Assembly: GCF_000273375.1 (NCBI RefSeq)
Contig: NZ_CM001557.1
Location: forward strand, 84,388 to 148,387
DNA from: Bartonella birtlesii IBS 325
Lineage (GTDB): Bacteria > Pseudomonadota > Alphaproteobacteria > Rhizobiales > Rhizobiaceae
Reading direction: 5' to 3'
DNA: 64,000 nucleotides
The notes beneath the pieces were generated by a model that saw nothing but the letters and a program-made list of their open reading frames with translations, ran no database searches and was not told the origin of the DNA. How positions within the stretch are numbered: position 1 is the first letter of the stretch; every line of letters begins with the position of its first letter. Below, one piece after another: positions 57,784 through 64,000 of the stretch. The translations under genes were made by a program, and so were the position numbers.

Positions 57784-58853
57784 ATGGGCACCTTTACACC
57801 GCTTGTCTTTTCCGGCGTACAACCGAGTGGTAACTTACATCTTGGCAATTATCTTGGAGCCATAAAGCATTGGGTTGAGCTGCAAACATCTTATAATTGT
57901 CTATATTGCGTTGTCGATATGCATGCACTTACAGTGAACCCAGATCCACAAACTTTAAGTGCATCAACCAGAGCAGCCACAGCCACTTTTTTAGCTGCTG
58001 GTATTGATCCTCAAAAACACATTATTTTCAACCAGTCTCAGGTTTTTCAACATGCCGAACTTGCATGGATTTTAAATTGTATCGCCCGTATTGGCTGGCT
58101 CCAACGCATGACACAATTTAAAGATAAAGCAGGAAAAGATCGTGAAAAAGCATCCCTAGGACTTTTCGCTTATCCAAGTCTGATGGCAGCCGATATTTTA
58201 CTCTATCGTGCCACACATGTTCCAGTGGGTGAAGATCAAAAACAGCATGTTGAACTCACGCGCGATATTGCGCAAAAATTCAATAACGATTATGCTGACC
58301 GCATTGCAGATTTAAATTTTGATATTTCAATGCAAATGAATGAGGAAAAAAGACAAGGCTTTTTCCCAATGCCAGAAGCACTGATAGGAAAAACAGCCAT
58401 GCGTATAATGTCCTTGCGCGATGGTACAAAAAAAATGTCAAAATCAGATCCTTCAGATTTTTCACGCATTAATTTGACCGATGATGCTGATCTTATTGCA
58501 AAAAAATACGCAAAGCAAAAACCGATTCCGCCCCTCTCCCCGACACATTGGAAGCTTTAGAAGGACGACCAGAGATTGACAATCTGCTTGGTATTTATGC
58601 GGCTTTTGCCCAAATAAGTAAAGAAAAGGCTCTTTTAGAGTTTTCTGGAAAACAATTTTCGCTTTTCAAAACAGCCTTAGCTGACCTTGCCGTCCATAAG
58701 CTTGCACCCATAACAGAAGAACTGCGTCGACTGCATCAAGAAAGTGCTTATATTGACTCTGTTTTGCACGATGGTGCACAACGTGCCAGTGCTCTAGCAG
58801 AAAAAAATATGAAAAAAATCCGTAAAATCGTTGGATTTTTGCACCATACTTGA
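57784..58853 (+). pseudogene. trpS: Tryptophanyl-tRNA synthetase, frameshifted in an A-run
   Basis: The first frame (57784-58560) has [13 protein letters not shown] (HIGH-like region) and Lys-Met-Ser-Lys-Ser near residue 218 (KMSKS). Its last ~18 codons are out of frame. The proper C-terminus continues in the next frame to 58853 (Leu-Glu-Gly-Arg-Pro-Glu, then Asn-Leu-Leu-Gly-Ile-Tyr). Seven A occur at 58500-58506; eight would give [12 protein letters not shown], the expected family sequence. TrpS charges tRNA-Trp and should be essential, so a sequencing error in the A-run is the simplest explanation. Confidence 0.92.
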
Positions 58854-61818: not shown

Positions 61819-62069
61819 ATATTTGCCTCTTTTGTTCAAAAAATCATTCCTTTAAGCGGTCATAGAGCAATATGTACACATTGTCTATTGTCTCACAAAA
61901 AACATCTGACTTTTTCTCATCTCATCCCTGCCCCTGTGATACCGTATAATAAAAATCCCATTGGGCACCATCATCTTTACGTTTATGAAAATACTAACCG
62001 CTACACGCACACGCACTACCCTTGCAGATCACAAGTGAGGTTGAGGTATAGAAAAAACTCCTTACGAGA

Positions 62070-62258
62070 ACCCTAAAATCTGAACACGAAGATTAACCCA
62101 TTATAAATGAGCCCATACTATAGGTATCCTAAAAATTCCGGGAGATTTTGCCATGTCCAGGTGCTCTCAGCACTAAAAGCAAAATGCTGATTTGAGTTCA
62201 GTTTTAGACTCCCGGAATACCAATGCGAGGGCGCTCGCAACCGGCGGGGGACTCTAAA
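62070..62258 (+). ncRNA. Brt-like RNA leader, copy A
   Basis: It shares with copies B-D the order: 5' CCCTAAAATCTGAAC, a CCATACTATAGG hairpin, ATTCCGGGAG ... CTCCCGGAAT long stem, CCATGTCCAGGTGC core, and the GCGAGGGCGCTCGC hairpin just before the regulator start. No copy of the TTGTAA/TATAGT promoter precedes it, so expression is uncertain. Such leader RNAs upstream of XRE regulators are known in Bartonella henselae as Brt RNAs. Boundaries are approximate. Confidence 0.65.
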
Positions 62259-62380
62259 GTGCAAGTAAAAAATCCTCTCAACTACATTTTGCAAGCAAGA
62301 AAATTACAATTTTCTCGTCATTGTTTATTTGATAAGAAACGCGGTACCTCTCATGAGAAACATTGTACGTTAAGAGACAT
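62259..62380 (+). pseudogene. Truncated XRE regulator after Brt copy A
   Basis: It begins GTGCAAGTAAAAAATCC like the intact regulator (GTGCAAACCAAAACTCTC), keeps about 15 codons, then passes into AATTACAATTTTCTCGTCAT, which is not part of the intact gene. The same junction occurs in copy C, so one deletion event predates the array duplication. Confidence 0.65.
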
Positions 62381-62394
62381 TGTTTTCATTTTTA

Positions 62395-62423
62395 TTGTAA
62401 ATCCCCTGAAATTCCTTTATTAC
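62395..62423 (+). promoter_or_regulatory. Promoter of Brt copy B
   Basis: TTGTAA (62395-62400), 17-base spacer ATCCCCTGAAATTCCTT, TATTAC (62418-62423). The -35 and spacer are identical to the promoters of copies C and D. The -10 is weaker. Confidence 0.65.
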
Positions 62424-62429
62424 TTAAAA

Positions 62430-62647
62430 GGTGATTTTGGTCGCATACGCAACGACCAATAGGGAACTGAAAACCCTAAGCTCTAGCGTAAAAATAAACC
62501 CACTCTGTGGGTATCCCGGAATTCCGGGAGATTTTGCTATGTCCAGGTGCTCTCAGCACTAAAAGCAAAATGCTGACTAGAGCTCAGTGTTTTCAGACTC
62601 CCGGAATACTCATGCGAGGGCGCTCGCAACCGGCGGGGGGCTCCAAA
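62430..62647 (+). ncRNA. Brt-like RNA leader, copy B
   Basis: Hairpin TTGGTCG/CGACCAA, then AGCTCTAG (62479-62486), a CCCACTCTGTGGG hairpin, the long stem ATTCCGGGAG (62521-62530) / CTCCCGGAAT (62598-62607) enclosing TTTTGC/GCAAAA and GTGC/GCAC stems, and CTAGAGCT (62577-62584), which can pair with the 5' AGCTCTAG. The GCGAGGGCGCTCGC hairpin and GGCGGGGGG lie just before the GTG start of the intact regulator. RNA start is set 7 bases after the -10; the 3' end is approximate. Confidence 0.75.
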
Positions 62648-63013
62648 GTGCAAACCAAAACTCTCAACGACATTTTTGTAGGCAAGAGAATTCGTTTTAG
62701 GCGAAAAATGTTGAAAATGTCTCAAAAAGAATTAGCGCATGCTTTAAATGTAAGCTACCAACAAGTTCAAAAATATGAAACAGGCTTAAATCGTGTTGCT
62801 GCGGGACGCCTGAAAGATATTGCCGATATCCTAAGCGTTCCACTTACCTTTTTCTACGCTGATGTCTTAACAAAACAAGAAACCTCATACCAACATGATG
62901 CGCTCATATCGAGCAGAGAGGAATATCTGCTTTTAAAAAGATTTAGAATTTTAACCTCTGTAAAACAAAGAGCAATTTTACAACTCATCGCTGATCAAAA
63001 TGAAAGTTTTTAA
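62648..63013 (+). CDS. XRE-family transcriptional regulator (Brt-linked), 121 aa
   Basis: Start GTG at 62648 with GGCGGGGGGCTCCAAA upstream. The frame is open further 5', but that part is the RNA leader. The helix-turn-helix (about residues 10-65) reads Ile-Arg-Phe-Arg-Arg, Met-Ser-Gln-Lys-Glu-Leu-Ala, Val-Ser-Tyr-Gln-Gln-Val-Gln-Lys-Tyr-Glu, Gly-Leu-Asn-Arg. Then Pro-Leu-Thr-Phe-Phe-Tyr and a C-terminal Lys-Gln-Arg-Ala-Ile-Leu-Gln-Leu-Ile. Regulators of this type, each behind a Brt RNA, are reported to control adhesin genes such as badA in B. henselae. Here the target is unknown. Confidence 0.88.
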   Translation: MQTKTLNDIFVGKRIRFRRKMLKMSQKELAHALNVSYQQVQKYETGLNRVAAGRLKDIADILSVPLTFFYADVLTKQETSYQHDALISSREEYLLLKRFRILTSVKQRAILQLIADQNESF

Positions 63014-63068
63014 CATTATGGAGAGATCTACACTCTCTGTTCAGTAAAAAACGCTGTTTTCATTTTTA

Positions 63069-63097
63069 TTGTAAATCCCCTGAAATTCCTTTATAGT
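63069..63097 (+). promoter_or_regulatory. Promoter of Brt copy C
   Basis: TTGTAA (63069-63074), 17-base spacer, TATAGT (63092-63097), a near-consensus housekeeping promoter. Confidence 0.75.
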
Positions 63098-63103
63098 TTA
63101 AAA

Positions 63104-63323
63104 GATGTTTTGGTTGTATACGCAACGACCAAAAGGGGCCTTGAAAACCCTAAAATCCGAGCGTAAAAATGAACCCACTCTGTGGGTATCCCGGGATTCC
63201 GGGAGTTTTTGCTATGTCCAGGTGCTCTCAGCACTAAAAGCAAAAAGGCTGACTCGGATTCAGTATTTTCAAGCTCCCGGAATACCAATGCGAGGGCGCT
63301 CGCAACCGGCGGGGGGCTCTAAA
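63104..63323 (+). ncRNA. Brt-like RNA leader, copy C
   Basis: Same architecture as copy B, but the 5' segment is AATCCGAG (63154-63161) and its partner inside the hairpin is CTCGGATT (63253-63260): both sides changed and pairing is kept. The long stem is ATTCCGGGAG (63196-63205) / CTCCCGGAAT (63274-63283). Confidence 0.75.
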
Positions 63324-63395
63324 GTGCAAACCAAAACTCTCAACGACATTTTTATAGGCAAGAAAATTACAATTTTCTCGTCATTGTTTATTTGA
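63324..63395 (+). pseudogene. Truncated XRE regulator after Brt copy C
   Basis: GTG start and 14 codons as in the intact gene (Val-Gln-Thr-Lys-Thr-Leu-Asn-Asp-Ile-Phe-Ile-Gly-Lys-Lys), then a different sequence and a stop after 23 codons. Same junction as copy A. The whole helix-turn-helix is missing. Confidence 0.75.
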
Positions 63396-63455
63396 TGAGG
63401 AACACAACACCTCCCATAAAAAATGATCCGTTAAGAAAGACTGTTTTCATTTTTA

Positions 63456-63484
63456 TTGTAAATCCCCTGAAATTCCTTTATAGT
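63456..63484 (+). promoter_or_regulatory. Promoter of Brt copy D
   Basis: TTGTAA (63456-63461), 17-base spacer, TATAGT (63479-63484), identical to that of copy C. Confidence 0.75.
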
Positions 63485-63490
63485 TTAAAA

Positions 63491-63706
63491 GGTGATTTTG
63501 GTCGCATACGCAACGACCAAAAGGGTTCAAAAGCCCTAAGCTCTAGCGTAAAAATGAACCCACTCTGTGGGTGTCCCGGGATTCCGGGAGATTTTGCTAT
63601 GTCCAGGTGCTTTAAGCACTAAAAGCAAAAAACTGACTAGAGCTCAGTACTTTTGACTCCCGGAATACCAATGCGAGGGCGCTCGCACTCGGCGGGGGGC
63701 TCCAAA
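63491..63706 (+). ncRNA. Brt-like RNA leader, copy D
   Basis: As copy B: AGCTCTAG (63539-63546) and CTAGAGCT (63637-63644), stem ATTCCGGGAG (63581-63590) / CTCCCGGAAT (63657-63666), GCGAGGGCGCTCGC hairpin, GGCGGGGGG before GTG. One change in the 3' part (CACTCGG for CAACCGG). Confidence 0.75.
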
Positions 63707-64000
63707 GTGCAAACCAAAACTCTCAACGATATTTTTGTAGGCAAGAGAATTCGTTTGAGGCGAAAAATGCTAAAAATGTCTCAAAAAGAATTAGCGCATG
63801 CTTTAAATGTAAGCTACCAACAAGTTCAAAAATATGAAACAGGCTTAAATCGTGTTGCTGCGGGACGCCTGAAAGATATTGCCGATATCCTGAGCGTTCC
63901 ACTTACCTTTTTCTACGCAGATGTCTTAACAAAACAAGAAACCCCATACCAACATGATGCGCTCATATCGAGCAGAGAGGAATATCTGCTTTTAAAAAGA
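63707..64000 (+). CDS. XRE-family regulator (Brt-linked), 3' end outside window
   Basis: 98 codons are visible from the GTG at 63707. The sequence is nearly identical to the regulator at 62648 (a few changes such as Leu for Phe in the first basic block). The helix-turn-helix is complete. It is the second intact regulator of the array. The gene should end about 70 bases beyond the window if it matches the first. Confidence 0.88.
   Translation, partial: MQTKTLNDIFVGKRIRLRRKMLKMSQKELAHALNVSYQQVQKYETGLNRVAAGRLKDIADILSVPLTFFYADVLTKQETPYQHDALISSREEYLLLKR

What the first reader, a model, noticed from the sequence alone, without database searches (positions are those of the whole stretch)
62470..63670. 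Covarying long-range pairing in Brt-like RNAs suggests a pseudoknot or switch
In copies B and D the 5' segment is AGCTCTAG and a segment inside the main hairpin is CTAGAGCT. In copy C both changed, to AATCCGAG and CTCGGATT, keeping an 8-bp perfect pairing. Copy A keeps CTGAAC/GTTCAG. The second segment lies between the arms of the ATTCCGGGAG/CTCCCGGAAT stem, so the pairing crosses that stem: it must form a pseudoknot or be mutually exclusive with it. If exclusive, the freed CTCCC could pair with the GGGGGG in front of the regulator's GTG start and block translation. The pairing and its covariation are direct observations; the switch model is inference.
Basis: partly seen in the sequence, partly recalled or inferred. 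Interest (0 to 1): 0.75.

Follow-up and report, generated by a model that had tools for sequence, protein, structure and literature searches.

The report
Covarying two-state fold in Brt RNAs
The small Brt RNAs that sit in front of regulator genes in Bartonella keep a long-distance helix whose two halves change together across the genus, and this helix competes with another conserved helix, so the RNA probably switches between two shapes.

Summary
In 161 distinct full-length Brt copies from 36 genomes of the genus the two segments mostly keep pairing while their letters change. Against an independent-sites null on a tree, 17 column pairs are significant. Nine belong to this helix (P2), all in one register; a cruder null gave none. 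P2 is longer than reported: an inner 7 bp plus an outer 7-8 bp, whose arm lengths also covary. Copies with an intact regulator gene behind them keep P2 more often (weak P2 in 4 of 100 versus 20 of 55 broken).

S also shares its 5' strand with a conserved local hairpin, P4. So the RNA has two organised folds, P2+P4 or S with small hairpins P1b and Pc, unless P2 and S coexist as a pseudoknot. I cannot decide between these.

The translation-block idea is half supported: in the isolated 3' end CTCCC hides the ribosome site, but full-length folds do not show it. The copy A pairing is off-register.

Brt/Trp is a published system. Brt matches no Rfam family, and I found no covariation analysis of it in the papers I could search.

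The parts
62430..62633 (+). Brt copy B, predicted RNA
   Evidence: Ends are inferred: the start by homology with the promoter-like matches before copies C and D (copy B itself scored none), the end from the published 194-203 nt length and about 15 nt gap to trp. A slightly longer stretch folds with z -4.25.
62437..62459 (+). P1 hairpin, copy B (arms 62437-62443 / 62453-62459)
   Evidence: Column pair 45-61 significant.
62462..62476 (+). P1b hairpin GGG/CCC; its loop 62465-62473 holds most of the outer 5' arm of P2
   Evidence: All 3 pairs kept in 94 of 97 intact copies; pair 68-80 GC 138, AU 9, but not significant in the whole-alignment test.
62467..62474 (+). P2 outer, 5' arm CTGAAAAC, copy B
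   Evidence: Pairs 71-203, 74-200, 75-199, 78-196 significant.
62480..62486 (+). P2 inner, 5' arm GCTCTAG, copy B
   Evidence: Pairs 85-189, 86-188, 87-187, 89-185, 91-183 significant.
62499..62511 (+). P3 hairpin, copy B
   Evidence: Pair 107-113 significant, 10 of 10 same-branch double changes compensatory.
62514..62529 (+). P4 hairpin TCCCGGAATTCCGGGA, copy B; shares its 3' strand with S
   Evidence: All 6 pairs in 89 of 97 intact and 32 of 55 broken copies.
62521..62530 (+). S stem, 5' arm ATTCCGGGAG, copy B
   Evidence: All 10 pairs in 95 of 97 intact and 40 of 55 broken copies; nearly invariant, so almost no covariation.
62531..62571 (+). P5/P6 hairpin domain with nearly invariant internal loop, copy B
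   Evidence: P5 6 of 6 pairs in 96 of 97 intact and 53 of 55 broken copies; alignment.
62573..62587 (+). Pc hairpin CUGA(7)UCAG; its loop 62577-62583 is the inner 3' arm of P2
   Evidence: 4 of 4 pairs in 95 of 97 intact and 50 of 55 broken copies; loop of 7 nt in 91 of 100 intact.
62577..62583 (+). P2 inner, 3' arm CTAGAGC, copy B
62589..62596 (+). P2 outer, 3' arm GTTTTCAG, copy B
62598..62607 (+). S stem, 3' arm CTCCCGGAAT, copy B; can also pair the Shine-Dalgarno region
62614..62627 (+). P7 hairpin, copy B
   Evidence: 5 of 5 pairs in 95 of 97 intact and 39 of 55 broken copies.
62635..62640 (+). GGGGGG Shine-Dalgarno-like run before trp, copy B
   Evidence: Read directly.
62648..63013 (+). 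trp gene (HTH_3 regulator, 121 aa) behind copy B, GTG start
   Evidence: PF01381, E 1.4e-12.
63139..63283 (+). Brt copy C core: P2 outer 63139-63147 / 63266-63273, inner 63154-63161 / 63253-63260, P4 63189-63204, S 63196-63205 / 63274-63283
   Evidence: Followed by a 23-aa frame only.
63526..63666 (+). Brt copy D core: P2 outer 63526-63533 / 63650-63656, inner 63539-63546 / 63637-63644, P4 63574-63589, S 63581-63590 / 63657-63666
63707..64000 (+). trp gene behind copy D, runs past the window end
62078..62261 (+). Brt copy A, decayed: S and Pc kept, P2 not in register

Best explanation
Brt is a structured leader RNA with two competing folds built around shared strands. Fold 1: P2 (outer plus inner) closes a multi-branched domain, P4 forms, and CTCCC is left free. 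Fold 2: S forms by taking the P4 3' strand and CTCCC, while P2 opens and one arm of each of its halves is shown in the loop of P1b or Pc. Shown here: P2 is a helix kept by selection that covaries across the genus; S, P4, P1b and Pc are conserved in copies with an intact regulator; P4 and S share a strand and cannot coexist, and P2 and S cannot coexist in a nested fold. Inferred: the RNA switches between the two. In fold 1 the free CTCCC pairs the ribosome site of trp and keeps it silent (with termination following from lack of translation); fold 2 releases it. The trigger is unknown; the nearly invariant P5/P6 internal loop is my guess for the sensor.
For: P2: 9 of the 17 significant column pairs, all in one register, in 158 aligned copies against 150 simulated alignments. 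90.3% of P2 cells pair in register versus 60.0% and 49.6% one column off (97 intact copies). Inner pairs: 66 same-branch double changes, 63 compensatory; outer pairs 71-78: 42 and 31 (sums). Own arms -16.9 versus -10.6 kcal/mol for arms swapped among 147 distinct arm pairs; similar within genomes. Outer arm lengths covary (25, 6, 11, 43; p 6e-8). A second alignment of 57 intact copies agrees. P2 is weaker than -11 kcal/mol in 4 of 100 intact versus 20 of 55 broken copies (5 of 105 if frames running into N are counted). Two folds close in energy: P2 favoured in 62 of 81, within 3 kcal/mol in 32 of 81; when P2 is forbidden S forms (median 0.97, mean 0.83). One intact copy changed all three strands together: TCCCAG / CTGGGA / CTCCCAG. 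3' module. Published: removing the 3' region of brt1 raises trp1 (passages of PMC8070961).
Against: S and P4 are almost invariant, so covariation cannot prove them; the triple change is one event. Full-length nested folds do not show the ribosome site opening in fold 2. RNAalifold on intact copies picks fold 2 with P2 probability 0.0, single-sequence folds mostly pick fold 1: predictions disagree. A pseudoknot holding P2 and S together would remove the need for a P2/S switch. A substitution-shuffling null gave 0 significant pairs. In one search the number of further pair types is not unusual (99 of 500 shuffles reach it). On average 14.7% of swapped arms pair as well as the own ones. Four intact copies have weak P2.
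Confidence: 0.5

Rival explanations
1. P2 and S form at the same time as a pseudoknot: the Pc loop pairs the 5' segment, and the P1b loop pairs the stretch before CTCCC, on top of the S fold. The conserved small hairpins are there to present the loops. P4 is only an early folding step.
For: Pc loop is exactly 7 nt in 91 of 100 intact copies and wholly Watson-Crick complementary to the own 5' arm in 70 of 99. P1b and Pc are kept in 94 and 95 of 97. Between inner and outer P2, positions 80-194 and 83-191 never pair across (0 of 155, 0 of 156), as if held in P1b and Pc. Apart from P4 and the CTCCC/ribosome-site pairing it can hold every conserved helix; with the inner P2 written as crossing S, 98.1% of cells pair.
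Against: P4 5' arm is conserved in intact copies (89 of 97), which a static pseudoknot does not explain. Other middle positions do pair across P2: 81-193 in 156 of 158, 84-190 in 150 of 156, 79-195 in 62 of 155, 82-192 in 74 of 158. No three-dimensional test was possible; few nucleotides are left to span P2 if it is full length.
Confidence: 0.33
2. P2 simply closes one stable fold (P2+P4) and S is a chance or DNA-level feature; the RNA does not switch.
For: P2 is favoured over S in nested folds of 62 of 81 intact copies, and P2+P4 persists in the step-by-step folding of copy B.
Against: S is 10 of 10 in 95 of 97 intact copies and falls to 40 of 55 in broken ones; one intact copy changed all three strands together.
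Confidence: 0.1
3. The pairing is between two RNA molecules (a dimer of identical Brts, or between paralogues), not within one.
For: Covariation alone cannot tell cis from trans. Some mispaired copies match another copy of the same genome (for example -22.2 kcal/mol for L048_9811 3' arm with L048_6580 5' arm).
Against: Own arms are the strict best match in 108 of 154 within-genome comparisons. Words are not more different within genomes than by chance (15 of 171 same-word pairs, shuffles 13.5), so no sign of selected pairing identity. Mispaired arms look like recombination products.
Confidence: 0.06
4. Apparent covariation is hitch-hiking: linked alleles moved by gene conversion among paralogues.
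For: Copies seem to recombine (arm-swapped copies); the tree null does not model recombination; 5 of 17 significant pairs are not base pairs.
Against: All 9 significant pairs between the two P2 regions lie in one antiparallel register and are complementary; lengths covary; one intact copy per genome (33 genomes) still gives 89.9% and 92.3% pairing with up to 4 pair types.
Confidence: 0.02
5. P4 with the U run behind it is an intrinsic terminator about 105 nt into the RNA, and P2 or S tunes it.
For: P4 of copies B, C and D score as terminator-like (9 sites on both strands, 2.0 expected).
Against: The U run is 4-5 long and is needed for P5; published Brt RNAs are 194-203 nt, so RNA polymerase passes it; S is completed too late to act as an antiterminator there.
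Confidence: 0.05

Closest known systems
Brt RNA / Trp regulator family of Bartonella henselae (PMC5387305)
   Same: Same length class (inferred ends), same place directly before HTH_3/XRE regulator genes, several copies in many genomes, confined to Bartonella in our searches. The authors already proposed a riboswitch-like attenuator at the 3' end.
   Different: Their structures are single-sequence RNAfold drawings (figures not seen). In the passages and sections I read there is no covariation and no P2/S/P4 competition; the word pseudoknot does not occur in the main text.
Riboswitch or attenuator leaders with mutually exclusive helices over a ribosome site (recalled)
   Same: Two conserved helices share a strand; the freed strand can mask the ribosome site.
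   Different: No ligand shown; a heme response is reported only at reporter level in review passages. The variable part is the competing helix P2, not just a loop.
[quoted passage not shown]
   Same: Proposed double role, leader and small RNA.
   Different: SreA/B are SAM riboswitches (recalled); Brt matches no Rfam family at gathering score.
Loop-loop kissing RNAs such as ColE1 RNAI/RNAII (recalled)
   Same: A 7-nt hairpin loop fully complementary to its partner.
   Different: Here the partner is a single strand of the same RNA, and the helix extends outward.

Membership tests
Brt RNA family | RNA of about 194-203 nt just upstream of an HTH/XRE trp gene | tested here: met
   Position: 105 of 161 copies are followed by a frame of at least 100 aa, 5 of these running into N; window trp is HTH_3. 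Length only inferred; absence of a separate trp promoter was not tested.
Brt RNA family | Confined to Bartonella | tested here: met
   46 of 71 genus genomes hit; of 297 genomes drawn from the family 2 hit, both of this genus; 5 plasmid records, all Bartonella; phages none. By DNA similarity only.
Brt RNA family | High transcription with silent trp | not testable with these tools
   Published for B. henselae.
Riboswitch | Mutually exclusive conserved helices in a leader | tested here: inconclusive
   P4 and S share a strand; both are conserved. A P2/S pseudoknot is not excluded.
Riboswitch | Direct ligand binding | not testable with these tools
   Heme response of a gfp reporter is reported in review passages; no binding shown there.
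Riboswitch | Match to a known Rfam class | tested here: not met
   0 gathering matches in the window; up to E 5 only FasX at 22.1 bits against a cut-off of 100.
Intrinsic-terminator attenuator | GC hairpin plus U run at the RNA 3' end | tested here: not met
   No + strand terminator-like site at the 3' end of the RNAs in 62000-64000; the only + strand ones are P4.
H-type pseudoknot | Two crossing helices present together | tested here: inconclusive
   Crossing shown; coexistence not testable by alignment.

The most novel reading that the evidence does not exclude
A genus-wide, multi-copy RNA switch in which two small hairpins each show one arm of a long helix in their loop. The arms find their partners (kissing first, then zipping) and thereby decide which of two partners a shared GC strand takes, so each leader carries its own privately coevolving latch over a common invariant switch core.
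Probability: 0.35. Interest if true: 0.72.

Novelty: new variant of a known kind. Interest (0 to 1): 0.55.

Why it matters
Brt/Trp is linked in B. henselae to control of an adhesin and of biofilm growth, and how the RNA silences trp is left as a hypothesis in the papers I saw. A covariation-tested structure names the exact helices to probe. It also supplies natural test pairs, because matched and mispaired leaders occur in nature. It would allow an Rfam family to be built for these RNAs.

Tried and rejected
A first covariation test, a shuffle of substitutions over the tree in the style of R-scape (two versions), gave 0 significant pairs because its null scores were larger than any observed score. 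I replaced it by column-specific simulation that matches each column's rate and composition; a reader should weigh both. R-scape itself was not available.

A first constrained-folding script misused a constraint option; its S-forbidden numbers are discarded and redone.

Selection for different words within a genome: rejected (15 of 171 same-word pairs, shuffles 13.5).

Rfam relatives: none at gathering score. Relatives outside the genus by DNA similarity: none among the family genomes sampled, plasmids and phages.

Not found in print, by full-text searches (listings; three papers opened): any covariation, pseudoknot or alternative-helix analysis of Brt. Figures and supplements were not seen, so the published RNAfold drawings may already show P2. 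The 2020 paper behind the heme and deletion data was not held.

Rows dropped: partial copies (nhmmer 262 hits in overlapping loci, 215 full length, 161 distinct); 3 near-identical copies (158 left); copies whose trp frame runs into N (5 of 161) and one with too little sequence behind it. Energy tests used 81 of 100 intact copies, those with exact S arms and a recognisable ribosome site. Copies come from 36 of the 46 genomes with a match; the match list was cut, and it scored at most 10 candidates a genome.

Full report
What was claimed. Three Brt-like copies in the window pair an 8-nt 5' segment with an 8-nt segment inside the ATTCCGGGAG/CTCCCGGAAT stem (here S), and the pairing survives sequence change. 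The coordinates check exactly for copies B, C and D. For copy A the quoted 6-nt match is off-register and the homologous segments do not match well (my reading).

What it is. The window lies in a 1.83-Mb genome; the closest trp genes in named records are from Bartonella taylorii (93%) and other Bartonella. The RNAs match, by inferred length, position before HTH_3/XRE genes and genus restriction, the published Brt family of B. henselae (PMC5387305; abstract, passages and sections 17, 20, 22 read). A copy in a 1,931,047-base contig, the size I recall for B. henselae Houston-1, has the same elements: outer ATCTAAAAA / TATTTTTAGA, inner ATCCGAG / CTCGGAT (L050). No Rfam family matches. The single-sequence folds of B, C and D are more stable than shuffles (z -4.25, -3.34, -3.81). 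They show the claimed pairing as the inner part of a longer helix, P2.

Collecting relatives. BLAST found copies in 46 of 71 genomes of the genus. From automatically fetched loci and 40 further stretches, nhmmer gave 262 hits, 215 full length, 161 distinct, from 36 genomes. Alignment was by sequence only (MAFFT), so it is not fitted to any structure.

Is the covariation real? (1) Mate swap: own arms pair at -16.9 kcal/mol on average, swapped arms at -10.6, over 147 distinct arm pairs; the median copy is matched by 2.7% of swaps, the mean is 14.7%. Within genomes -16.9 versus -10.7, own strictly best in 108 of 154. (2) Tree-based simulation with each column's own rate and composition (158 copies, 150 replicates): 17 pairs at E below 0.05. 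Nine are in P2 (five inner, four outer), all with column sum 274. One each lies in P1, P3 and P5. Five are not base pairs (99-103, 82-93, 82-91, 216-221, 244-249). An earlier, cruder null gave none. (3) Changes on single branches: inner P2 63 of 66 double changes compensatory, outer P2 (71-78) 31 of 42. (4) Register: 90.3% paired in register against 60.0% and 49.6% one column away. (5) Lengths: an outer 5' loop of 8 or 9 nt goes with a 3' spacer of 9 or 10 nt (25, 6, 11, 43; p 6e-8, intact copies); in broken copies the link is not significant (p 0.19). (6) A second alignment of 57 intact copies from 33 genomes, at most two per genome and chosen to differ in their loop word: 7 of 7 inner and 7 of 8 outer pairs have changes on both sides. 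For the whole P2+P4 structure 0 of 500 shuffles reach the covariation score, but 99 of 500 reach the number of further pair types. These sequences were chosen for diversity, so absolute counts are inflated.

Link to function. Copies followed by a regulator frame of at least 100 aa keep P2: weaker than -11 kcal/mol in 4 of 100 against 20 of 55. Counting the 5 frames that run into N it is 5 of 105. P3, P4, S and P7 behave the same way (Fisher p 4.0e-7, 1.7e-6, 4.3e-6, 1.4e-6); P5 and Pc do not differ (p 0.30, 0.10). Relatedness is not corrected in these p values. Several mispaired copies look like recombinants whose arm finds its mate in another copy of the genome.

The competition. S uses CCGGGAG and CTCCCGG. 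P4 (TCCCGGNATTCCGGGA) uses the same CCGGGAG. P2 crosses S. In intact copies P4 is complete in 89 of 97 and S in 95 of 97. Both are too constant to covary, except in one intact copy where all three strands changed together, TCCCAG / CTGGGA / CTCCCAG (L048:7958-8179). Nested thermodynamics put the P2 ensemble below the S ensemble in 62 of 81 intact copies, by 2.9 kcal/mol on average (range -6.9 to 11.4), within 3 kcal/mol in 32. RNAalifold on the intact copies instead prefers S with P1b and Pc. I read this as two nearly balanced folds; it could also mean that a pseudoknot combines them, which nested methods cannot score.

Presented arms. The inner 3' arm of P2 is the loop of a conserved hairpin, Pc (CUGA/UCAG): 7 nt in 91 of 100 intact copies and fully Watson-Crick complementary to the own 5' arm in 70 of 99. 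With G-U allowed it is complementary over its full length in 72 of 99; against the 5' arms of other intact copies in 1789 of 9672. The outer 5' arm lies mainly in the loop of P1b (GGG/CCC, 94 of 97). Between inner and outer P2, positions 80-194 and 83-191 never pair across (0 of 155, 0 of 156), as expected if held in P1b and Pc; but 81-193 (156 of 158) and 84-190 (150 of 156) do, and 79-195 and 82-192 do in 62 of 155 and 74 of 158.

Output. CTCCC can pair GGRGG before the trp start. In the isolated 3' module this lowers the unpaired fraction of that site from 0.51 to 0.17 on average, by more than 0.1 in 73 of 81 and with a rise in none. In full-length folds the effect is not seen and even reversed (0.37 with S forbidden, 0.24 with P2 forbidden). 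So the translation block is plausible, not shown. No intrinsic terminator was found at the RNA 3' end. A review reports that deletion of the 3' region of brt1 raises trp1 and that a gfp gene behind brt1 is brighter at low heme (PMC8070961, passages); the original paper was not available.

Verdict. The covarying long-range helix is real and larger than reported. That it must exclude S or knot with it is correct. The switch is my leading reading, with a pseudoknot as the strongest rival. The family is known; the evolutionary test of its structure appears new in what I could search.

Noticed in passing
57784-58853: A tryptophanyl-tRNA synthetase-like reading frame (named from recall) is split into a 258-aa and a 101-aa piece in different frames; possibly an assembly error, since such a gene is normally essential.
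   Followed up: no
L048 (G021), copies 9811-9557 and 6580-6322: Two mispaired Brt copies of one genome in which the 3' arm of one matches the 5' arm of the other at -22.2 kcal/mol, as after recombination between copies.
   Followed up: partly
plasmid records H1-H5: Five Bartonella plasmids match the Brt and trp-start region (77-96% of the query), two predicted conjugative and two mobilizable, so the unit can probably travel.
   Followed up: no
62629-62640 and relatives: In CCGGNGGG before the trp start, N is C 39, T 21, A 21 and never G in the 81 intact copies that fit the pattern; G would make the pairing with CTCCCGG perfect.
   Followed up: partly
62514-62537, 63189-63212, 63574-63597: P4 followed by a short U run looks like an intrinsic terminator early in the RNA.
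   Followed up: partly
L063 3638-4436: Three Brt copies lie head to tail within 800 bases with under 40 bases between them (coordinates); the 3' arm of the second pairs best with the 5' arm of the third.
   Followed up: no
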